DNA from: Desulfovibrio piger
Lineage (GTDB): Bacteria; Desulfobacterota; Desulfovibrionia; Desulfovibrionales; Desulfovibrionaceae
DNA: 64,000 nucleotides
NCBI RefSeq assembly: GCF_900116045.1
Contig: NZ_LT630450.1
Span: forward strand, 2,442,501 to 2,506,500
Direction of reading: 5' to 3'
A program made the position numbers and the translations under genes. The notes beneath the pieces were generated by a model. It worked only from the letters and a program-made list of their open reading frames with translations, ran no database searches and was not told the DNA's origin. Position 1 is the stretch's first letter; each line of letters opens with the position of its first letter. Shown one piece after another: positions 31,730-47,220 of this stretch.

Positions 31730-31806
31730 TTTGTGGTATACAGGGCAGGTATGCGCGTGCCGCAGGCACGCGGTACTTCCCCCTAGGACACGAACCCCCG
31801 AACGGC

Positions 31807-32412
31807 ATGAATCTGGAAAGTCTGCGTCGCCGCCTGAGCAGCGACGAAATCAACGCCCTGCCCCTGTGCCATTACGAAGGGCCCATCCATCTGGTGCGCA
31901 GTCTGGAAGACTGGGAAAAGGCCCTGCCGGATCTGGCGCGGGAACAGGTGCTGGGCTTCGATACCGAGACCCGTCCCTCCTTCCGCAAGGGCCGGCTCAA
32001 CACGCCTTCCCTGGTGCAGCTGGCCACGGGCCGGGCCGTTTATCTGGTGCAGCTTTCCTGGTGGCCTTTCGGGCCCGAGCTGGCGGGCCTGCTGGCCGAC
32101 CCCGGCGTCATCAAGGCCGGGGTGGCCATCGGCGACGACATGCGCGAGCTGGGGCGGCTGTATCCTTTCACGCCCGCGGGCACGGTGGATCTGGGCATGG
32201 TGGCCCGGGCCCACCAGCTGACCACGCAGGGCCTGCGCACCCTGGCCGCCAACCTGTTCGGGCAGCGCATCTCCAAGGGGCCCCAGTGTTCCAACTGGAG
32301 CGTCCCGGAGCTGAGCAAACGCCAGGTCATCTACGCCGCCACCGATGCCTGGATCGGCCGCGCCATCTACCTCAGGATGCGCGAGCTGGGCATGACCGGA
32401 GAAGCGGCGTGA
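31807..32412 (+). CDS. 3'-5' exonuclease domain protein (RNase D-like)
   Basis: This 201-aa protein is one DEDD-type exonuclease domain. Motif I is LGFDTETRPSF near residue 50, motif II is in the AGVAIGDDMREL region, and motif III is YAATDAWIGRAIY near residue 178 (D-x4-(R/A) of DEDDy type with Tyr). No HRDC domain is present, so it is a short RNase D relative; substrate unknown. The ATG at 31807 fits the compact domain. It overlaps the CofD-like gene by 4 nt. Confidence 0.88.
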   Translation: MNLESLRRRLSSDEINALPLCHYEGPIHLVRSLEDWEKALPDLAREQVLGFDTETRPSFRKGRLNTPSLVQLATGRAVYLVQLSWWPFGPELAGLLADPGVIKAGVAIGDDMRELGRLYPFTPAGTVDLGMVARAHQLTTQGLRTLAANLFGQRISKGPQCSNWSVPELSKRQVIYAATDAWIGRAIYLRMRELGMTGEAA

Positions 32413-33602
32413 GCGTCCTTTTGCCCGCCCTTGGTCCCCGGCTGGTCTTCTTCACCGGCGGTACGGCCCTCAGGGGCCTGAGCCGCAGCCTTACCCGTTA
32501 TACCCACAATTCCGTCCATCTGGTGACGCCCTTCGATTCGGGCGGCAGTTCCGCCGCCCTGCGCGAAGCCTTTGCCCTGCCCGCCGTGGGGGACATCCGC
32601 AACCGCCTGGCCGCCCTTGCGGACAGCATGGTCCCGCAGAGCGTGCTGGACTTCTGGGAGATGCGCCTGCCCGCGGAAGGCGATTCCGAGGCCCTGCGCG
32701 CCCGCCTGCGCGCCATGGGCAGCGCCGGGCACCCCTGCTGGCGTCTCCTGCCGCCGGTCATGGCCGATGTGATGCGGGTGCATCTGGGCTATTTCCTGGA
32801 GCGCATGCCCGATGATTTCCGCCCCCAGAAAGCCAGCATGGGCAACCTGCTGCTTGCCGGGGGCTATCTGCATTTCCAGCGCAATTTCACCCCGGTACTG
32901 AGCCTGTTCAGCCGTCTTTTGCAGGTGCGCGGCGTGGTCCTGCCCATCGTCAATGCCTGTCTGCATCTGGCTGCCGAGCTGGCCGACGGTTCCGTCCTGG
33001 TGGGGCAGCACCACTTCTGCCGCCTGACCCAGCCGGTGCGGCGCCTCTACCTCACGGTCCATGAACCGGGGCGCACCTCCACGGCCCTCACGCCCTGCCG
33101 TCCGCCCCTGTCGGCCACGGCGGCCACCTATCTGCAAAGCGCCGGGGCCATCTGCTATCCCATGGGCAGTTTCTACACCAGCGTGCTCTCCAACCTGCTG
33201 CCCGACGGCGTGGGCCGTGCCGTGGCCGCGGCACGCTGCCCCAAGATCTACATCCCCAATTCCGGCAGGGACACCGAGGCCCAGGGCCTGAGCCTCACCG
33301 CCCAGGTGGACATGCTGCTGCGCCACCTGCAGCAGGACGCACCGCAGGCGGGCCCCGGCGATTTGCTGCAGGCCGTGCTGCTGGACAGCCGCCACGGGCG
33401 CTACCCCGGCGGCATTGAATGGAAGGAGCTGGAACGCCGCGGCATCGAGGTGGTGGACCGGGAGATGGTCTGCCCGGACGACCCGCAGCACCACGATCCC
33501 CAACGGACCTCCGTGGCCCTGCTGGAGCTGGTGGAGGATCTGCGTGCCCGTGCGCGTGCCCCGGAAGCGGGGACGGCCGCGGCTTCGGATGAGGATGCCT
33601 GA
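32409..33602 (+). CDS. CofD-like/YvcK-family protein
   Basis: This 397-aa protein begins PRLVFFTGGTALRGLSRSL, the FTGGTG-type nucleotide motif of the CofD/YvcK family, followed by the HLVTPFDSGGSSAALRE segment typical of it. Later come NACLHLAAELADGSVLVGQ and PMGSFYTSVLSNLLPDG, the conserved active-cleft elements. CofD itself transfers a phospholactyl group in F420 synthesis; this branch is closer to the uncharacterised CofD-like proteins of deltaproteobacteria (the so-called GAK-system type), so its activity is unknown. The GTG start overlaps the upstream stop (GTGA) with GGAG in place. The stop overlaps the next ATG by 1 nt. Confidence 0.82.
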   Translation: MSVLLPALGPRLVFFTGGTALRGLSRSLTRYTHNSVHLVTPFDSGGSSAALREAFALPAVGDIRNRLAALADSMVPQSVLDFWEMRLPAEGDSEALRARLRAMGSAGHPCWRLLPPVMADVMRVHLGYFLERMPDDFRPQKASMGNLLLAGGYLHFQRNFTPVLSLFSRLLQVRGVVLPIVNACLHLAAELADGSVLVGQHHFCRLTQPVRRLYLTVHEPGRTSTALTPCRPPLSATAATYLQSAGAICYPMGSFYTSVLSNLLPDGVGRAVAAARCPKIYIPNSGRDTEAQGLSLTAQVDMLLRHLQQDAPQAGPGDLLQAVLLDSRHGRYPGGIEWKELERRGIEVVDREMVCPDDPQHHDPQRTSVALLELVEDLRARARAPEAGTAAASDEDA

Positions 33603-39208: not shown

Positions 39209-39635
39209 CGTAAAAGAGCTTCGCCTGCGCGGCGGGCGGCACGACGCCTTCGGCGTACGCCGCCCGATCGGCGCGCTCAATGGATGGGGAAGGGAGGTAT
39301 AACGATGGCAGAGCGGCCGCTGGTTGGGGGATGGATGTGCAGGAGCGTCGTGTGGAAGGGTGCCGCCAGTGGCGTGGAAGTTCCTCTTGGCAGAACAGGA
39401 TAGACTGATTGTCTGTTCGTGATGGAGCTATCAGGGGCTGGGAGGAAGGCCTTGCAGACGTTGTGGGCGCGTTTGGGGCGATGAAAAGCGCAGATTGCTT
39501 TGTATTACGAGGAGAGCGGTCGCTCGTCCGCATCCGGGGCGAGCATCCGGGGCGGCAAGGACCGGGGAAAGCGGCACGTTTTTTATCTGTCCGTCAGGAC
39601 AAAATAAAACGCGCTGGGGAGGGGGAGGGGAGTTT
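39209..39635. other. Gap without a recognisable gene
   Basis: About 430 bp between the HD-ddl promoter and the repeat next to the Ehr locus. Short frames exist on the plus strand but have low-complexity Gly/Arg/Ser composition and no ribosome site. I see no RNA gene. Confidence 0.5.
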
Positions 39636-39687
39636 GAGGGGAGGGGGAAGCCCCTCTCGCGTCAGCAGAGGGGTTCCCCCTCCCCTC
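39636..39687. repeat. G/C-tract palindromic repeat, copy 2
   Basis: The left arm at 39636-39656 (GAGGGGAGGGGGAAGCCCCT plus a final C) pairs with GAGGGGTTCCCCCTCCCCTC (39668-39687) with one bulged base, around an 11-nt loop. It begins 9 nt past the stop of the last Ehr gene on the minus strand. Related to copies at 14723-14787 and 49817-49866. Confidence 0.7.
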
Positions 39688-39696
39688 ATCTAGCCT

Positions 39697-40494
39697 TTAC
39701 AGCACGTCTTTTTCCGACTTGAGGCGCAGCAGGCCGTCGAGGATGCTCCAGGGGCTGGGCGGGCAGCCGGGCACGAAGAGCTGCACGTCGCACAGGGGCG
39801 GCAGGCCGCCGCAGCACTCGTCGCTGTCGGCGAAAAGGCCGCCGGAGATGGCGCAGGAGCCCACGGCGATGGCGATGCGCGGTTCGGGCACGGCGGCCCA
39901 GGTGGCCAGCACGGCGTCGCGCATGTTGCGGCTCACGGGGCCGGTGACCAGGATGCCGTCGGCATGGCGGGGCGAGGCCACGAAGCTGATGCCGAATTTG
40001 CCCAGGTCATAGACCAGGGTGCCCAGCACGTTGGTATCGGCCTCGCAGGCGTTGCAGCCGGCGGCGCTGATCTCGCGCAGCTTGAGCGAGCGGGAGAACA
40101 GGCCGTGGCAGGCCGTGGGCGTGTGCGGGGGGCGGGGCCGGGCCGTGACGATGAGGTCCTCACGGGTAAAGGCGGCCACGCGGTAGTCTTTGGTGAAGCG
40201 GATCAGGCCCTCGCCGCGTGCCGCGGTACAGGCACGGGCACAGGCGCCGCAGAACAGGCAGCGCCCCATGTCCAGGGCGATGCCGCCGGTCTCGCCGGCG
40301 GGGCCGGGCCCGGCGGGCGAGAGCTTGCGCAGGGCCCCGGTGGGGCAGACGTCGAGGCAGGCGCGGCAGGCGCCGCAGTCCCCGGCCGCGATCTCGGGGC
40401 GCCCCATGTAGCGGGGCGAAAGGCCCGGCGCCTTGCGGGGAAAGTCCAGCGTCCTGTATTTCTGGTGCAGGCGTTCCTTGAAGATGTCCAGCAT
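39697..40494 (-). CDS. Ehr complex small subunit: fused ferredoxin and NuoB/HyfI-like protein
   Basis: This 265-aa protein combines what Hyf or complex I make as two. Residues about 1-100 are a polyferredoxin (HyfH/NuoI-like) with CGACRACLDVCP near residue 39 and CLFCGACARAC near 79. Residues about 140-265 are the NuoB/HycG-type small subunit, with CNAC near 145, VGSC near 215 and VPGCPPSPW near 242, so the ligands of the cluster next to the large subunit are all present. It should relay electrons from the clusters to the site at the large-small subunit interface. It is last in the six-gene operon, 14 nt after the large subunit. Confidence 0.88.
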   Translation of the reverse strand: MLDIFKERLHQKYRTLDFPRKAPGLSPRYMGRPEIAAGDCGACRACLDVCPTGALRKLSPAGPGPAGETGGIALDMGRCLFCGACARACTAARGEGLIRFTKDYRVAAFTREDLIVTARPRPPHTPTACHGLFSRSLKLREISAAGCNACEADTNVLGTLVYDLGKFGISFVASPRHADGILVTGPVSRNMRDAVLATWAAVPEPRIAIAVGSCAISGGLFADSDECCGGLPPLCDVQLFVPGCPPSPWSILDGLLRLKSEKDVL

Positions 40495-40508
40495 GTCAGT
40501 CCTCCTGC

Positions 40509-42071
40509 CTACAGGTCGTGGCCGCAATAGGAAAGGTTGAAGCTCTTGTTGCAGAGCGGGAAGTCGGAGATCTGTTCGCCGCGCAGGGCCATCTCCAGAC
40601 CGCTCCAGTTGTGCCACGAAGGATCGTAGATCTTGTAGACGCCGAAGCGGCCTTCCGCATCCGTGACGGCCACATGGCACAGCTCGCCGCGCCAGCCTTC
40701 CACTTGGGCCACGGCCAGCATGCCGCCGGGCAGGGCCCCGGGCATGGGCGCGCGCCAGAGGGCGGCATCGCTCTCGCTCCCGTTGAGCTTTTCCTCCTCG
40801 CCCAGACGGGCCAGATGCTGGAGGTCGGCCTCCACCAGGCGCACGGAGTCGGCCACTTCCAGACGGCGCACCGTGGCGCGGCCCAGCACGTCGCCGCCCT
40901 GGGCGGTGCGGATGTCGGTATCTTCCAGCGGCAGGCGGGAAAGGGGCGCATGGCGCCGGGCATCGCGCGGCAGGCCGCAGGCACGCGCGGCCACGCCCAC
41001 CATGCCGAAGACCTCGGCGGTGCGCAGGCTGACGCAGCCCGTGCCGGTCAGACGGTCCAGCACGCTGGGCGAGGCGAACATCACGTCCACGGCGCCCCTG
41101 ACATCGCGCCAGCCCGCACGCAGGCGGTCCAGCAGGCCGCGGCAGGCGGCGGGATCCAGATCCCGGCTGACGCCGCCGGGGCAGACCAGACCGCGCCCGA
41201 AGCGGTTGCCGCAGATCTCGGCGGTCATGTTGAGGAAGTCGCCGCGGATGCGGCCGTTCCAGGACGAGGTGGGCAAAAAGCCCGTATCGCCCGCGATGGC
41301 GCCCAGATCGCCGGTGTGGTTGGCCAGGCGTTCGAACTCCAGGCCCATGCGCCGCAGCAGCTGGGCGCGCAGCGGCACGCTGACGCCCGCCAGACGTTCC
41401 AGCACCACGCAGTAGGCCGTGCAGTGGCCCACGCTGGTATCCCCGGCCACGCATTCCATGAGCGCGGCATCGCGCAGGTGCGGGCCTCCGGCCAGCATCT
41501 TTTCCACGCCGCGGTGCTGGAAGCCCAGGCTGATCTCCAGATTGAGCACGTTCTCGCCGTAGCACTGGAAGCGGAAGTGCCCGGGCTCGATGATGCCCGC
41601 ATGCACGGGGCCCACGGCCACTTCGTGGACCTCGCTGCCCTCCACGCGGTAGTGGTCGCACTGGGCCGGGCCGGGACGCTCCGCGCCCGGGGCGGGCGTG
41701 GTGTAGCGCACGGGCTTGAGCCAGGGGTGGCCCTCGGGCACGATGCCCCAGGCCTCGTGGACCTCACGCTCGAAGCGCTGGAGCTGGGGGCACTCCAGGC
41801 TCATGGACGCATAGCGGTCCAGCGGCAGGCAGCGGGAGGCCCACAGTTCCTGCTGCCGGTCATGGGCCATGACGCAGCACAGACCGGCGGCGGCCGTATT
41901 GCCCGCCACCAGCGCCAGCTCGCCCGGGGCGTACAGGGCCCGGGGCAGGCCGAAGAAGGCCAGCACGCGCCAGCCGTGCGCCACCTGCGTCAGGATGGCG
42001 GCCCTCAGGGAGGCCGCGTCAAGACAGGGGATGTCGGCCAGTCTGGCCGGGGAAGCATAGGAAAAACGCAT
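40509..42071 (-). CDS. Ehr complex large subunit: HycE/HyfG-like, NiFe ligands missing
   Basis: This 520-aa protein is a NuoC-NuoD fusion like HycE. The NuoC-like part (about 1-150) has FEREVHEAWGIVPEGHPWLKP. The NuoD-like part has GPVHAGIIEPGHFRF and NLEISLGFQHRGVEK. In hydrogenases the next motif is CGICxxxH; here it reads VAGDTSVGHC (near residue 206). The C-terminal DPCxxC is replaced by DPSWHNW (near 483). With all four metal-binding cysteines changed it cannot hold a NiFe centre, so it belongs with energy-converting hydrogenase-related (Ehr) complexes. The substrate is unknown. Confidence 0.9.
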   Translation of the reverse strand: MRFSYASPARLADIPCLDAASLRAAILTQVAHGWRVLAFFGLPRALYAPGELALVAGNTAAAGLCCVMAHDRQQELWASRCLPLDRYASMSLECPQLQRFEREVHEAWGIVPEGHPWLKPVRYTTPAPGAERPGPAQCDHYRVEGSEVHEVAVGPVHAGIIEPGHFRFQCYGENVLNLEISLGFQHRGVEKMLAGGPHLRDAALMECVAGDTSVGHCTAYCVVLERLAGVSVPLRAQLLRRMGLEFERLANHTGDLGAIAGDTGFLPTSSWNGRIRGDFLNMTAEICGNRFGRGLVCPGGVSRDLDPAACRGLLDRLRAGWRDVRGAVDVMFASPSVLDRLTGTGCVSLRTAEVFGMVGVAARACGLPRDARRHAPLSRLPLEDTDIRTAQGGDVLGRATVRRLEVADSVRLVEADLQHLARLGEEEKLNGSESDAALWRAPMPGALPGGMLAVAQVEGWRGELCHVAVTDAEGRFGVYKIYDPSWHNWSGLEMALRGEQISDFPLCNKSFNLSYCGHDL

Positions 42072-42074
42072 GGT

Positions 42075-43610
42075 CTAGCCTCCAATGAGGGCCGCGCCGG
42101 CGCGCAGCAGCTTTTCGACGCCGTCGGGCATCCAGAAACCCAGCAGCAGCACGCCCAGGCCCAGGGTCATGGGCGGCAGTACGCTCAGGGCGGACTCACG
42201 CGGGCATTCGGGCATGTCGGTGGGGCGGGTGCCCTGGAACATGCGCAGCACGGCCACGGACATGCCCACGAAGATGATGGCCAGGGCCAGCAGGTACAGG
42301 GCGGCCACCAGCCACTGGCCCTGCTGCAGGATGCCCTTGAGGATCAGGAACTCGCTGACGAACAGGCCGAACGGCGGCGAGCCCACGATGGCCAGGAAAC
42401 CGCCCATCCACAGGGCGCCGGTGACGGGCATGGTCCAGCGCAGGCCGTGCACGTCGTAGCTGGAATAGGTGTGGTAGCGGGCCAGGATGTTGCCGGCCAG
42501 CAGGAAGAGCATGCACTTGGTCAGCGAATGGCACACGGCATGCAGCATGCCGCCGAAGGCCGCGGCGCCGCCCAGGCCCACGGCCAGGGCCAGGATGCCC
42601 ATGTGCTCCACGCTGGAGTAGGCCAGCATGCGCTTGTAGTGGCCCTGTCCCACGATGAAGATGGCGGCCACGAACATGGAGACCAGGCCGAAGAAGACCA
42701 GCAGCGTGCCGCTGAACCCGCCCAGGCCCGCGCCCAGCATGATCTGGTGCCCGCGCAGGATGCCCAGGAAGGCGCAGTTGAGCAGGGCGCCGGACAGCAG
42801 GGCCGAGACCAGCGAGGGGGCCTGGCTGTGGGCGTCGGGCAGCCAGTTGTGCAGGGGCGCCAGGCCCATCTTGGTGCCGTAGCCCACCAGCAGGAAGATG
42901 AAGGCCGCCTTGAGCCAGGGCAGATAGGTGGCCGCGCTCTGGGGCGCATCCAGCACGGCCAGGGCATCGGCGCGCTGCCGGGCCAGATGGCGGAAGGCCT
43001 CCACCTGGTCCATGCTCTCCACCGGCGGCACGCCGGGCTCGTAGAAGGCCACGGAAAGCAGGATGTTGCCCAGCAGGGCCAGGGCGATGCCCACGGAACA
43101 GATGATGAGGTATTTCCAGGTGGCTTCCAGCGACTGCTTGTGGCGGTGGAAGTAGATGAGGGGCGCGCTGGACAGGGTGGTGATCTCGATGCCCACCCAC
43201 AGGGCGCCCAGATGGCGCGTGGTGGTGACCAGCGTCATGGCCGAGAGGAAGAAGCACAGGCAGGCCGTGAAGCGGCGTTCCGGGGCATTGGTGAAGGCCC
43301 GGCCGTCCAGGATGCTGGCACGTTCGGTGATCCGGGCCTCGTCGCGCAGATAGCCCACGCCGTAGACCGAGGCCACCAGAAAGAGCACGCTGGCCAGCAC
43401 GAGGAAGAGCGTGCCCAGCGCGTCAGGCGCCAGCAGACCGGCCAGGGCCTGCGGATGCAGGCCGCCGCTCACGTCGGCGGCCAGTTTGAGGGAAAGGGCC
43501 GTGTGCAGCACGGCCGTGAGCAGGAGCAGGCCGCGGCAGACGGTGGTATTGCCCAGCAGCAGCATGAGCAGTCCGGCGCACAGGGGCGCAAACAGCAGAC
43601 ATTCCAGCAT
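42075..43610 (-). CDS. Ehr complex antiporter-like subunit, HyfF/NuoN type
   Basis: This 511-aa protein has about 14 transmembrane helices and belongs to the Mrp/NuoLMN antiporter family. Visible family features are LWVGIEITTLSSAPLIY (the Glu in helix 5), GYGTKMGLAPLHNWLPDAHSQAPS (the Lys in helix 7 and the broken-helix region), and KRMLAYSSVEHMGI. It should form one proton or sodium path of the complex. It lies 9 nt after the HyfE-like gene and 3 nt before the large subunit. Confidence 0.92.
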   Translation of the reverse strand: MLECLLFAPLCAGLLMLLLGNTTVCRGLLLLTAVLHTALSLKLAADVSGGLHPQALAGLLAPDALGTLFLVLASVLFLVASVYGVGYLRDEARITERASILDGRAFTNAPERRFTACLCFFLSAMTLVTTTRHLGALWVGIEITTLSSAPLIYFHRHKQSLEATWKYLIICSVGIALALLGNILLSVAFYEPGVPPVESMDQVEAFRHLARQRADALAVLDAPQSAATYLPWLKAAFIFLLVGYGTKMGLAPLHNWLPDAHSQAPSLVSALLSGALLNCAFLGILRGHQIMLGAGLGGFSGTLLVFFGLVSMFVAAIFIVGQGHYKRMLAYSSVEHMGILALAVGLGGAAAFGGMLHAVCHSLTKCMLFLLAGNILARYHTYSSYDVHGLRWTMPVTGALWMGGFLAIVGSPPFGLFVSEFLILKGILQQGQWLVAALYLLALAIIFVGMSVAVLRMFQGTRPTDMPECPRESALSVLPPMTLGLGVLLLGFWMPDGVEKLLRAGAALIGG

Positions 43611-43619
43611 GGTCGCCCC

Positions 43620-44240
43620 CTAGTCGCGCAGATCGTGGAAGCCTACGTCGATGGATTCGAACGTGTGGCTGATGTGGTTGATGGCGATGCCCATGACGAA
43701 GACCGCCACGAAGATGTCCAGCAGCAGGGTCAGCTCGAACCAGACGGCACCGGCCGTCATGAGCGGGATGCCCAGCAGGAAGATGCCGTTTTCGGCCACC
43801 AGATAGCCCATGACCTGCGAGAGCGCCGTGGCGCGGCCCACCACCAGCAAGAGGCCGCAGAACAGCGTGGTCAGGCCGGCGGGCAGGAGCAGGGGCGGGA
43901 AGAGGCCGGGCGTCATGGGCAGGCGGCCTTCCAGCCAGAGCGAGAAGACCAGGCAGGCCAGACCGGTGAGCACGGCCAGGCCGAAGCCCAGACGGGGCTT
44001 GATGTGCGGATCGGCACCGATCTGGCGCCGGGTGCGGTGCAGCAGCCAGGGGAGCAGGCCGCCCTTGATGAGCAGCACGGCCACGGCCAGCAGGGCATGG
44101 TCATGCATGAGCAGCAGGCCGCCCAGCAGGATGCCCTGCGCGGTCACCAGATTGATGAGCGTGCGCAGGCGGCCCATGCCCAGCAGGGCCAGGTTGTTGA
44201 GCGTCAGCAGGAAGAGGAAGAACTGGAAAAGAGCGCTCAT
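43620..44240 (-). CDS. Ehr complex membrane subunit, HyfE type
   Basis: This 206-aa protein is highly hydrophobic with six or seven helices, matching HyfE. The C-terminal half resembles NuoK, with GYLVAENGIFLLGIPL (a conserved membrane Glu in the NuoK-like position) and DIFVAVFVMGIAINHI. It links the antiporter-like subunits. It starts 3 nt after the HyfC-like gene stop. Confidence 0.9.
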   Translation of the reverse strand: MSALFQFFLFLLTLNNLALLGMGRLRTLINLVTAQGILLGGLLLMHDHALLAVAVLLIKGGLLPWLLHRTRRQIGADPHIKPRLGFGLAVLTGLACLVFSLWLEGRLPMTPGLFPPLLLPAGLTTLFCGLLLVVGRATALSQVMGYLVAENGIFLLGIPLMTAGAVWFELTLLLDIFVAVFVMGIAINHISHTFESIDVGFHDLRD

Positions 44241-44243
44241 GGT

Positions 44244-45176
44244 TTACCTCACCTGGGTCAGGATCAGGGCCAGGGCCGAAAGCACGGCCGCGCCGCCCAG
44301 CAGCACGGGCACCTTCTGCATGCGCAGACGGGCCATGACGGATTCCACTATGCCCACCAGCACGGCCACGGCGAAGATGCAGGCCAGCCAGCACAGGCTC
44401 TGCTGCCACAGGGGCAGGTCGGGCACCAGGATGCCCGCGGGCAGGGCCGCGAAGAACCACAGCTTGAGGGCCGCGCCGTACTCGATGAAGGAGAGGCTGG
44501 GGCCGGAGTGGTCCAGGATCATGACCTCGTGGATCATGGTCAGTTCCAGATGGGTGGTGGGGTCGTCCACGGGGATGCGGCTGTTCTCCACCAGCAGCAG
44601 CACGAAGAAGACCATCGGCACCAGCAGCAGCTCGGCGCGTCCCAGCAGCCATTCGTGGGCCGGGCGGCCGCCCAGCATGCCGGAAAGGGAAAGCGCATCG
44701 TGCATGCCTAGGGCGGAGCCCACGCCCACCAGGGTCAGCAGGCAGAGGAAGAGCACCGGCTCGGACAGGGCCGAGAAGGCGGCCTCGCGGCTGGCGCCCA
44801 TGCCTTCAAAGGAGGAGCCCGTGTCCAGGGCGGCCAGCATGGTCAGAAAGCGGCCCAGGCCCAGCAGGTAGGCGGCCAGCAAAAAGTCGCCGGAAAAACG
44901 CAGCGGCGAGGCCATGCCGCCCAGGGGCAGCAGGGCTAGGGCGCAGAGCACCGTGGCCAGGCCCACCACCGGGCCCAGCGTGAAGACGGGCGTGGTCACA
45001 TGGCTGATGACCTCGCCCTTGCGCAGGCCCTTGACGATGTCGAAGTACAATTGCAGCACAGGCTTGCCGTGCCTGCCCGCCACCTTGGCCTTGACACGGG
45101 CTATGATGCCCGGCAGCAGCGGCGCCAGCAGCAGGGCCAGCGCATACTGGAAACAGTAGAAGGCGAGATCGCTCAT
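44244..45176 (-). CDS. Ehr complex membrane subunit, HyfC/HycD (NuoH-like) type
   Basis: This 310-aa NuoH/HycD-family protein has the conserved PLLPGIIARVKAKVAGRHGKP loop near the N-terminus, QLYFDIVKGLRKGEV, FFVLLLVENSRIPVDDPTTHLELTMIHE (the acidic stretch that joins the catalytic arm to the membrane arm) and a hydrophobic C-terminus. The ATG at 45176 overlaps the preceding HyfB-like stop by 4 nt (ATGA). Confidence 0.93.
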   Translation of the reverse strand: MSDLAFYCFQYALALLLAPLLPGIIARVKAKVAGRHGKPVLQLYFDIVKGLRKGEVISHVTTPVFTLGPVVGLATVLCALALLPLGGMASPLRFSGDFLLAAYLLGLGRFLTMLAALDTGSSFEGMGASREAAFSALSEPVLFLCLLTLVGVGSALGMHDALSLSGMLGGRPAHEWLLGRAELLLVPMVFFVLLLVENSRIPVDDPTTHLELTMIHEVMILDHSGPSLSFIEYGAALKLWFFAALPAGILVPDLPLWQQSLCWLACIFAVAVLVGIVESVMARLRMQKVPVLLGGAAVLSALALILTQVR

Positions 45177-47185
45177 GCGTGCAGCCCCCAGGCCAGCAAC
45201 GCCACCAGCGTGGCGAGGATGTAAAGGATATAGAGATGGATCTTGCCGTGTTGCAGGATCTTGCACATGTTGCAGAGCTTCTCCACGCCTTCGAACAGCG
45301 GCGTGAACAGGCCCGTGCGCAGACGGTCGGGGGCGGAGATGGCCACAGACGCCTTGCCGGGGAAGTAGCGGCCGTCCAGCTCCTGATGCACCTTCAGGCC
45401 CATGGCGCCGCCGAAGAGGCGGCCCAGCGGCTCGGAGAAGGAAGCGTCCGTGTACTGCACGCGCGCCGTCCCGTACCGGTAGCCGCAGCCCCAGGTCTCC
45501 TCGCGGCGCAGACGGCCGGCGATGCAGGCCTTGCGCAGCAGCCACAGGGCGGCCACCAGGGCCAGCAGCACCATGCCCACCAGCGAGACCGTGCCCAGCA
45601 TGTCGGCCACGCGCAGCATGACCTGCTGTCCGGCGGCCGGATCGGGCAGGGGCGCGTTGACCGTGCTGATGAGCCAGCGGAAGCAGTGGCCGGAGGCCAG
45701 GCCGCCGGCCACGCAGAGGAAGGCCGGGATGGCCAGGGGCCAGAGGTCACGGGGACGGGGGCGGTGGGCCTCTTCCACGCAGCGGCTGCGCGGCGCGCCC
45801 AGGAAGGTGATGCCGTAAGCCTTGGCATAGGTGGCGGCGGCCAGACCGGAGACCAGGCCCAGCACCACCAGCGCCATGAGCAGGCCCAGCTGCTGTTCCA
45901 CACCGGGCAGGCTGGAGCCGTCCAGCAGGGAAAGGGCCAGCACGAATTCACCGGCAAAGCCGTTGAAGGGCGGGAAGCAGGCGATGGAGACCGCGCCGAT
46001 GCCGAAGGCGGCGCCCACCAGGGGCATGCGCTGCTGCAGGCCGCCCAGCAGGTCCATGCGCACCGTGCCGGTGGCGTGCAGCACCTCGCCGGCGGTGAGG
46101 AAGAGCAGGCCCTTGAAGGCCGAGTGGTTGAGCATGTGGAACATGGCACCGGCCAGGCCCAGGGTGCCGATCCAGCTGTTGCCGCTGTGGCTGCCGATGA
46201 GCCAGGCCCCCACGCCCATGAGCATGAGGCCCATGTTCTCCACGCTGGAGTAGGCCAGCAGGCGTTTGAGGTTGCTCTGGGCCAGGGCCTTGAGGATGCC
46301 CATCAGCGCCGTGCCCAGGCCCAGGAACAGGGCCAGCCAGCCCCACCAGGCCGGAGCGGCGCTCAGAGGGGCCACGAATTCGCAGCTGCGGATGATGCCG
46401 TACAGGCCCGCATTGATCATGGCGCCGGAGAGCAGGGCCGAGATGTGGCTGGGCGCGGCCGGGTGGGCCTCGGGTAGCCAGACGTGCATGGGCGCGATAC
46501 CGGCCTTGGCGCCGAAGCCCAGCAGGGAGAGCACGAACAGGACCGAGGCCAGCGGCACAGCGGGGCCTTCCCTGAGGGGCAGGACGGCGAAGGCCGTGTC
46601 GCCCGCGTTCTGCCAGAGCAGGCCGAAGAAGGCCAGCAGCAGCACGGCGCCCAGGTGGGCGGCCACCAGATAGACCCACGAGGCGTCGCGCACGTTGCGG
46701 TCGCTGTCGTTGAAGTCGATGAGGAAGAAGGGCGACAGGGACATGACTTCCCAGGCCAGCAGGAAGAGCACGGCGTCACGGGCCATCATGACCACGGCCA
46801 TGCCCAGCACCAGCAGCAGATAGAAGAGCCAGTGGGCGGCCAGGTTATGCTCGCTGGCGCGGGTATGGCGCAGCGAGATGCCCCCGGCGCAGGCACAGAC
46901 GAAGCCCAGGCCGAAGACCGGCAGCAGGAAGACGCGGGAAAGGGCGTCCAGCCCCAGACTCAGGCTGCCCACGGGCAGGCCCCAGGCCTGGGTCCACAGC
47001 AGGCTGTCTGTCCAGCTGTCCGTGAACAGGCCCGCCATGCCCAGGGCACAGCCGCAGGCGGCTCCCAGAGGGCCGGACAGGTCGGCCAGCCGGGTCGTGG
47101 CGGGCGTGGGGCGGGCAAAGGCCAGCAGCCCCAGACCGGCGGCGCTGACCGCCAGTACACACAGAGCCAGTAAAATCAGAAACAT
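45173..47185 (-). CDS. Ehr complex antiporter-like subunit, HyfB/HycC (NuoL-like) type
   Basis: This 670-aa protein has about 16 helices. The core is of NuoL/HyfB type: LFLLAWEVMSLSPFFLI (helix 5 Glu), GFGAKAGIAPMHVWLPEAHPAAPSHISA (helix 7 Lys and discontinuous helix), and KRLLAYSSVENMGLML. A C-terminal extension with KVHQELDGRYFPGKA ends in another helix. It is the first gene of the operon. I prefer ATG 47185, since GGAG lies 7 nt upstream; a GTG two codons earlier is possible. Confidence 0.92.
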   Translation of the reverse strand: MFLILLALCVLAVSAAGLGLLAFARPTPATTRLADLSGPLGAACGCALGMAGLFTDSWTDSLLWTQAWGLPVGSLSLGLDALSRVFLLPVFGLGFVCACAGGISLRHTRASEHNLAAHWLFYLLLVLGMAVVMMARDAVLFLLAWEVMSLSPFFLIDFNDSDRNVRDASWVYLVAAHLGAVLLLAFFGLLWQNAGDTAFAVLPLREGPAVPLASVLFVLSLLGFGAKAGIAPMHVWLPEAHPAAPSHISALLSGAMINAGLYGIIRSCEFVAPLSAAPAWWGWLALFLGLGTALMGILKALAQSNLKRLLAYSSVENMGLMLMGVGAWLIGSHSGNSWIGTLGLAGAMFHMLNHSAFKGLLFLTAGEVLHATGTVRMDLLGGLQQRMPLVGAAFGIGAVSIACFPPFNGFAGEFVLALSLLDGSSLPGVEQQLGLLMALVVLGLVSGLAAATYAKAYGITFLGAPRSRCVEEAHRPRPRDLWPLAIPAFLCVAGGLASGHCFRWLISTVNAPLPDPAAGQQVMLRVADMLGTVSLVGMVLLALVAALWLLRKACIAGRLRREETWGCGYRYGTARVQYTDASFSEPLGRLFGGAMGLKVHQELDGRYFPGKASVAISAPDRLRTGLFTPLFEGVEKLCNMCKILQHGKIHLYILYILATLVALLAWGLHA

Positions 47186-47220
47186 GGGCACACTCCGACA
47201 TTCAGACCGTCAAAGTACAC

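What the first reader, a model, noticed from the sequence alone, without database searches (positions are those of the whole stretch)
39697..47185. Six-gene Hyf-like membrane complex whose large subunit has lost the NiFe site (Ehr-type)
Gene order HyfB, HyfC, HyfE, HyfF, fused NuoCD-like, fused ferredoxin-NuoB-like is that of formate hydrogenlyase/Hyf complexes. In the large subunit the CGIC motif reads AGDT and the C-terminal DPCxxC reads DPSWHNW, so all four NiFe-binding cysteines are gone. The Fe-S ligands of the small subunit and the ion-path residues (Glu helix 5, Lys helix 7) remain. Such energy-converting hydrogenase-related complexes are known from surveys but their reaction is undetermined. 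A working ion pump with an unknown electron partner in a sulfate reducer is the most novel system here.
Basis: partly seen in the sequence, partly recalled or inferred. Interest (0 to 1): 0.78.

Follow-up and report, generated by a model that had tools for sequence, protein, structure and literature searches.

The report
Ion pump with rebuilt hydrogenase pocket
A gut sulfate reducer, probably Desulfovibrio piger, carries six genes for a membrane complex built like a hydrogen-making ion pump whose large subunit lacks all four active-site metal-binding cysteines; a different set of residues is conserved there in relatives from 14 phyla, so it likely still pumps ions but would run an unidentified reaction other than making hydrogen.

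Summary
The six genes are real and intact: HyfB, HyfC, HyfE, HyfF, a fused NuoC/D-like large subunit and a fused ferredoxin-NuoB small subunit, all on the minus strand. This is an Ehr (energy-converting hydrogenase-related) complex, a known family of unknown function. DPSWHNW is not the site of DPCxxC (it matches 'ATYANW' of HycE). The true site reads NLSYCG (residues 512-517 of 520), with a cysteine one place off. CGIC is replaced by AGDT, as stated. The site was not merely lost: 'GD' plus N-x-SY-[C/S]-G-x-D-L at the C-terminus is conserved, and the hydrogenase proton path (E162, H252, E405, R363, R461) is kept. The clade with this cysteine is monophyletic and spans 14 phyla. Of 50 carrier genomes searched, 16 have neither HypD nor a PF00374 hydrogenase, and 9 of these also lack markers of both menaquinone pathways. 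So H2 is excluded, and menaquinone is unlikely, as the general substrate. No redox partner recurs beside it, which points to a diffusible donor, likely ferredoxin. About half of the named loci carry an HTH-EIIA regulator, not found in this genome. The substrate stays unknown.

The parts
45173..47191 (-). HyfB/NuoL-like antiporter subunit, 672 aa (start GTG 47191 or ATG 47185)
   Evidence: PF00361 1.9e-51; best NCBIfam hydrogenase 4 subunit B 7e-159, below that model's cut-off; E148, H243, K360, E415 kept
44244..45176 (-). HyfC/NuoH-like membrane anchor, 310 aa
   Evidence: PF00146 4.4e-28; E-channel residues Y103, R109, E131, E139, E197 kept
43620..44240 (-). HyfE-like membrane subunit, 206 aa
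   Evidence: NCBIfam hydrogenase 4 membrane subunit 5e-12, below its cut-off; no Pfam match; place in the gene order constant in relatives
42075..43610 (-). HyfF-like antiporter subunit, 511 aa
   Evidence: PF00361 1.3e-47; hydrogenase 4 subunit F 1.1e-98, below that model's cut-off; E142, H261, K365, E420
40509..42071 (-). Large subunit (NuoC/D-like, EhrL), 520 aa, without NiFe ligands
   Evidence: PF00346 5.3e-30; HycE E 2.1e-38; Foldseek best 7z0s_E; alignment A3
41436..41447 (-). AGDT, residues 209-212, replaces CGIC; G210 and D211 invariant
   Evidence: G210 and D211 120 of 120
40512..40559 (-). C-terminal signature PLCNKSFNLSYCGHDL, residues 505-520; replaces DPCxxC, no C-terminal extension
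40605..40625 (-). DPSWHNW, residues 483-489: NOT the DPCxxC site; a segment with counterparts in true hydrogenases
39697..40494 (-). Fused ferredoxin (2x4Fe4S) plus NuoB-like small subunit, 265 aa
   Evidence: Fer4_7 1.3e-09 and Oxidored_q6 1.6e-22; C147, C150, C214, C244
39635..39688 (-). Strong hairpin just after the last stop codon, possible end of the transcript (no T run)
   Evidence: MFE -53 kcal/mol, z -5.5 for the 81 nt of 39620-39700

Best explanation
This six-gene cluster encodes an Ehr-type membrane complex, a relative of formate hydrogenlyase whose large subunit lacks all four NiFe-binding cysteines; it likely takes electrons from a soluble carrier, probably ferredoxin, to a small substrate that is probably neither protons (as H2) nor menaquinone, and is predicted to pump ions with the energy. 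Shown by sequence: gene content, intact frames, cluster ligands, loss of the NiFe ligands, the new conserved pocket residues and the kept proton path. Inferred: ferredoxin as donor (two-cluster ferredoxin domain as in Ech, Mbh and HycF; no NADH or formate module in the operon). Inferred: proton-coupled chemistry in the rebuilt pocket, because E162, the counterpart of HycE E193 and MbhL E21, and the path H252/E405/R363/R461 are kept while the canopy Asp is Asn512. Inferred: coupling to HyfB and HyfF, because their Glu, Lys and His residues are kept. Unknown: the substrate and the direction.
For: Ligand loss and new signature; further sample of the 120 nearest relatives of a Lentisphaerae member: G210, D211, E162, H157, H252, R363, R461, S514, Y515 and D519 120 of 120, E405 115, N512 117. 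Clade monophyletic 100/99, inside Ehr, 14 phylum-level groups. NiFe not needed: HypD in 32 of 50 genomes, PF00374 in 34 of 50; 16 lack both. Menaquinone not general: MqnA/D in 25 of 50, MenD over cut-off in 2 of the other 25; 9 of the 16 lack both. No recurrent redox gene seen in the operon. 2-oxoacid:ferredoxin oxidoreductase domain in 49 of 50. Ion path and clusters kept. Published residue roles: PMC9474812, PMC7684303 (passages).
Against: No structure of the pocket: the tail is below pLDDT 50 alone and still about 30-55 when folded with the small subunit of a relative. The ferredoxin control is weak (POR also in 11 of 14 control genomes). Eight of the nine genomes without NiFe and menaquinone markers have RnfC over the cut-off, so another ferredoxin-linked pump is present there. 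This genome itself has MqnA/D, so quinone cannot be excluded here. UbiA-type prenyltransferase is in 47 of 50, a broad family that also rings in all 14 controls. Most of the 50 records are titled MAG, of untold completeness. HycD loop glutamates E199 and E201 are not Glu in HyfC.
Confidence: 0.5

Rival explanations
1. It is a ferredoxin:menaquinone oxidoreductase: the NiFe cavity became a quinone pocket, as in complex I.
For: Same fold family as NuoD; this genome has MqnA/D; 25 of 50 relatives have them.
Against: Quinone-head residues of complex I are not kept: the Nqo4 H38 position is I161 and the Y87 position is G210 (roles from PMC7684303). 23 of 50 genomes lack MqnA/D and MenD over cut-off. 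The small subunit has CxxC, not the adjacent cysteines of complex I.
Confidence: 0.25
2. It is a sulfane or disulfide reductase that works like archaeal MBS.
For: MBS is a relative with a known non-H2, non-quinone substrate (PMC7684303, passages); a cysteine (C516) lies in the pocket segment.
Against: MBS has a proximal cluster with an open site, made by a motif three residues shorter (PMC7684303); here the CxxC motif aligns without a gap to HycG and all four ligands are present, also in the 21 relatives aligned. MBS lacks the counterpart of MbhL E21, kept here as E162; against that, PMC9474812 notes one acidic residue on the same loop of MbsL. C516 is Ser in 12 rows of other Ehr clades and in 3 of 120 clade members.
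Confidence: 0.1
3. It is wired to formate: a cytosolic formate dehydrogenase docks on it (FDH-Ehr).
For: G. sulfurreducens Ehr subunits are more abundant on formate than in hydrogen-containing conditions (PMC7894505, passages); FDH-Ehr proposed for Margulisbacteria (PMC6349859, passages).
Against: No formate dehydrogenase gene was seen to recur next to the cluster. Limits: 8 of 80 loci gave no usable gene call, 40 of 42 non-regulator operon extras were scanned, and the table shows 25 of 67 families, none with more than 2 members. The reading also does not say what accepts the electrons.
Confidence: 0.08
4. It is redox-dead in function, an ion exchanger under a PTS-Ntr regulator.
For: HTH-EIIA regulator in 42 of 80 loci, in 21 of them -19 to +31 bases from the first HyfB gene (recounted); a pH role was suggested for Methylacidiphilum Ehr (PMC6688271, passages).
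Against: Cluster ligands and the pocket are strongly conserved; the first ferredoxin motif is lost in one of 21 aligned relatives, L071. No regulator found in this genome.
Confidence: 0.05
5. It is a hydrogenase after all, with the metal held by other cysteines.
For: Four other cysteines are conserved together.
Against: 16 of 50 carriers have neither HypD nor any PF00374 hydrogenase.
Confidence: 0.02

Closest known systems
Ehr complexes (G. sulfurreducens GSU0739-0745; ehrABCDLS)
   Same: Same composition and loss of NiFe ligands, function unknown (PMC7894505, PMC6688271, PMC4378227, passages).
   Different: This one has the minimal six genes, no second HyfB and no HTH-EIIA gene. GSU sequences were not compared here; seven genes would fit the clade form with two HyfB (inference).
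Formate hydrogenlyase / Hyd-3 (HycE, 7z0s) and Hyf
   Same: Nearest solved structure by sequence and fold; gene set and proton-path residues.
   Different: No CGIC, no DPCxxC, canopy Asp529 is Asn, no formate dehydrogenase gene in the cluster.
MBS (P. furiosus sulfane reductase; 6u8y, identity of that entry recalled)
   Same: No NiFe site, antiporter-type membrane arm (PMC7684303).
   Different: Proximal cluster fully ligated, beta1-beta2 Glu in the MbhL E21 place kept.
Respiratory complex I (NuoB/C/D/H/L/M/N)
   Same: Superfamily fold; Glu and Lys in the antiporters.
   Different: No NADH module in the cluster, Y87 and H38 not kept, CxxC in place of adjacent Cys.

Membership tests
Ehr (energy-converting hydrogenase-related complex) | Group-4-hydrogenase-like large subunit without the four NiFe cysteines | tested here: met
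Ehr (energy-converting hydrogenase-related complex) | HyfB/C/E/F-like membrane arm with large and small subunits in one cluster | tested here: met
Ehr (energy-converting hydrogenase-related complex) | Branches with other NiFe-less members rather than inside Hyf/Hyc | tested here: met
   99/93 for the 47 NiFe-less rows; NuoCD and Ech rows are very long and the root is for drawing only; no published Ehr sequence was in the tree by name
Group 4 [NiFe] hydrogenase | CxxC and DPCxxC NiFe ligands | tested here: not met
Group 4 [NiFe] hydrogenase | H2 activity | not testable with these tools
MBS sulfane reductase | Three-cysteine proximal cluster from a shortened motif | tested here: not met
   against HycG; the MBS sequence itself was not aligned, the length difference is from PMC7684303
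Respiratory complex I | Quinone-head His and Tyr; adjacent Cys at N2 | tested here: not met
Respiratory complex I | Quinone reductase activity | not testable with these tools

The most novel reading that the evidence does not exclude
The dead NiFe site was rebuilt into a new catalytic pocket (xGD[T/S] plus N-x-SY-C-G-x-D-L at the C-terminus, with four clade-conserved cysteines) that runs a redox chemistry new to the complex I superfamily, after H2, sulfane and quinone, and drives an ion pump across at least 14 phyla.
Probability: 0.35. Interest if true: 0.88.

Novelty: new member of a known kind. Interest (0 to 1): 0.5.

Why it matters
The residues named here turn that into a test: a conserved pocket, a kept proton path, and hosts that seem able to make neither a NiFe centre nor menaquinone. 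If the substrate is new, it adds a branch to the history that links hydrogenases to complex I. In a gut sulfate reducer it would be an uncounted energy-conserving site.

Tried and rejected
Structure of the pocket: the large subunit alone folds well (pLDDT 89.9, pTM 0.91) but loop 157-160 and tail 507-520 are below 50. Folding it as one chain with the small subunit of a relative (L031) left the tail at about 30-55. The tool gave no coordinates, so no distances between C170, C287, C507 and C516 could be measured. Not used as support.

UbiA (PF01040) as a quinone marker was dropped: it rings in all 14 controls. MenD hits below the curated cut-off (19 more of 25 genomes; the control rings in 14, over the cut-off in 7) were taken as other ThDP enzymes.

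Ehr as the only ferredoxin pump of its hosts was considered and dropped: 17 of 50 genomes have RnfC over the cut-off, among them 8 of the 9 without NiFe and menaquinone markers.

C516 as an absolute requirement was dropped: Ser in 12 other-clade rows and in 3 of 120 clade members. In one search the clade was picked by its SYCG motif, so its 250 of 250 there is by construction.

Neighbour search: no shared redox gene seen. The cruder clustering mostly returned antisense shadow frames. In one search eight of 80 loci (L039, L063, L082, L092, L103-L106) gave no large-subunit call and were dropped; two of 42 extras (both L081) were left out. One paper looked up by DOI is not held. Two papers proved beside the point (PMC11540253, PMC8076601).
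Full report
What is there. Six intact genes lie on the minus strand at 39697-47191. HyfB and HyfC overlap by 4 bases; the other gaps are 3 to 14 bases. The order is HyfB (45173-47191), HyfC (44244-45176), HyfE (43620-44240), HyfF (42075-43610), a NuoC/D-like large subunit (40509-42071, 520 aa) and a ferredoxin-NuoB fusion (39697-40494, 265 aa). Pfam and NCBIfam agree, though no NCBIfam cut-off is reached in the rows shown and HyfE has no Pfam match. The genome is one contig of 2.81 Mb. Its large subunit is 96% identical to that of Desulfovibrio piger PG-251-APC-1, so the source is probably D. piger or a close relative. The genome holds one other large-subunit relative by this search, an Ech-type protein ending DPCVSCTER, about 79 kb away. 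In the window's family 48 of 149 sampled genomes have a match of 50% identity or more.

The NiFe site. The nearest solved relative by sequence and by fold is HycE of E. coli formate hydrogenlyase. In the alignment with HycE, a Hyf-type protein from the same genus (L141), Ech and NuoCD, the ligands C241, C244, C531 and C534 fall on A209, T212, S514 and G517. The former DPCxxC reads NLSYCG and the protein ends three residues later. None of the SYCG rows has an extension (250 of 250), nor any of a further 120. The C-terminus thus ends at the residue where the HycE motif DPCYSCTDR ends; that HycE is cut there on maturation is recalled.

The new site. Residues known from HycE work (PMC9474812, passages) map as follows: proton-donor loop E193 to E162, kept; H284, E437, R395 and R478 to H252, E405, R363 and R461, kept; canopy D529 to N512, changed; I243 to D211, changed. 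G210 and D211 were 250 of 250 in the SYCG rows and 120 of 120 in the further sample. N512 was 247 of 250 and 117 of 120; R363 is Lys in 10 of 250; E405 is Asp in 5 of 120. In the 17-row alignment every row with the SY tail has GD and N512; the two rows ending SNAECDR (L140, L142) do not. C516 is special to the window's clade. Of 273 rows, 250 read SYCG and 12 SYSG; the other 11 are fragments, chimeras, true hydrogenases, NuoCD and the two SNAE rows. In a tree of 51 rows the SYCG rows form one clade of 34 with support 100/99, and their sister pair reads SYSG. The 34 rows carry 13 phylum labels plus one record titled Riflebacteria; many come from metagenome assemblies. C516 is Ser in 3 of 120 further members. 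C170, C287, C507 and C516 occur together in 356 of 381 SY-tail rows; 12 of the 381 belong to other clades, so 356 of 369 (one of the 120 was dropped there for an Ala at 517). Caveats: L027-L106 were found with the patterns HAG[IV]IEPG and SDFPLCNK, so conservation of E162 and C507 among those is partly built in. The lists are the 120 best matches of one query each. Rows are related and some may repeat between sources.

Is NiFe or menaquinone needed? I chose 50 of the 80 named loci for diversity and searched their genomes. HypD was in 32 of 50 and a PF00374 hydrogenase in 34 of 50. All 32 with HypD have PF00374; two without HypD (G537, G544) have it, probably assembly gaps. So 16 carriers have neither. 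MqnA/D was in 25 of 50; of the other 25, 2 have MenD over the cut-off. Nine genomes lack all four markers: G532, G551, G554, G562, G568, G570, G574, G575 and G579. One of them, Rectinema subterraneum SURF-ANA1 (L086), is not titled MAG. Completeness of these genomes is not told. The own genome has MqnA/D. Against an easy reading: 8 of the 9 have RnfC over the cut-off.

Partners. The gene order is constant in most relatives that reach far enough, with an optional second HyfB. The only recurrent extra gene recognised is a helix-turn-helix plus PTS EIIA fusion (PF12728 and PF00359), in 42 of 80 named loci. In 21 of these it ends -19 to +31 bases from the first HyfB gene; in seven (L074, L084, L087, L092, L093, L095, L101) it lies after a first HyfB. 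The EIIA motif A-[IVLM]-P-H is present in 46 of 52 such rows and in 120 of 120 listed relatives (its role as phosphorylation site is recalled). It occurs beside other Ehr clades too (L130, L139, L146, L147). It was not found in the own genome by one search (which has no positive control) nor in L027-L030, the named loci nearest the window; a 74-aa piece is in L076, another Desulfovibrionaceae record. One search for print on such a regulator with hydrogenases found nothing. Of 42 other genes contiguous with the cluster in 72 of 80 loci, 40 were scanned and no Pfam family occurs in more than 2. The donor is therefore likely diffusible. Ferredoxin is the natural candidate; POR domains are in 49 of 50, but also in 11 of 14 controls.

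Print. Ehr is a named family of unknown function (PMC4378227, PMC10284858, PMC12342949; passages seen); one Desulfotomaculum EhrL is said to keep the four cysteines (PMC3569383). Ehr subunits are more abundant on formate than with hydrogen in G. sulfurreducens (PMC7894505), and Ehr proteins were among those higher in a syntrophic coculture (PMC8691401). In N. moscoviensis Ehr expression was not raised by H2 (PMC12342949). None of the ten searches was aimed at the C-terminal signature by its letters, so I do not claim that it is unpublished. The founding papers (Coppi; Marreiros) are known to me from recall and from citations in the passages; I did not look them up.

Verdict. An ordinary member of a widespread, unexplained family. 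The added value is the conserved replacement pocket and the evidence against H2, and for menaquinone not being general.

Noticed in passing
L046:3630-4295 and 42 of 80 named loci: A helix-turn-helix plus PTS EIIA fusion gene sits at the head of Ehr clusters in many phyla, but was not found in this genome or in L027-L030.
   Followed up: partly
L130, L131/L132, L133, L101: Two different Ehr clusters lie side by side in some genomes, one with the SYCG tail and one with a SYSG tail, divergent in L131 and L133 and in the same direction in L130 and L101.
   Followed up: partly
L143 (own genome C1:2396000-2412000): An Ech-type hydrogenase cluster (large subunit ending DPCVSCTER) lies about 79 kb from the Ehr cluster.
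   Followed up: no
window 39635-39688: A very stable hairpin (MFE -53 kcal/mol for the 81-nt stretch folded) follows the last gene; no T run follows it.
   Followed up: partly
L140, L142: A further NiFe-less branch ends in SNAECDR and has SGTS or SGSS in place of CGIC.
   Followed up: no
window 31731-33602 (+): A 623 aa frame with a CofD domain (2-phospho-L-lactate transferase family, 7.9e-37).
   Followed up: no
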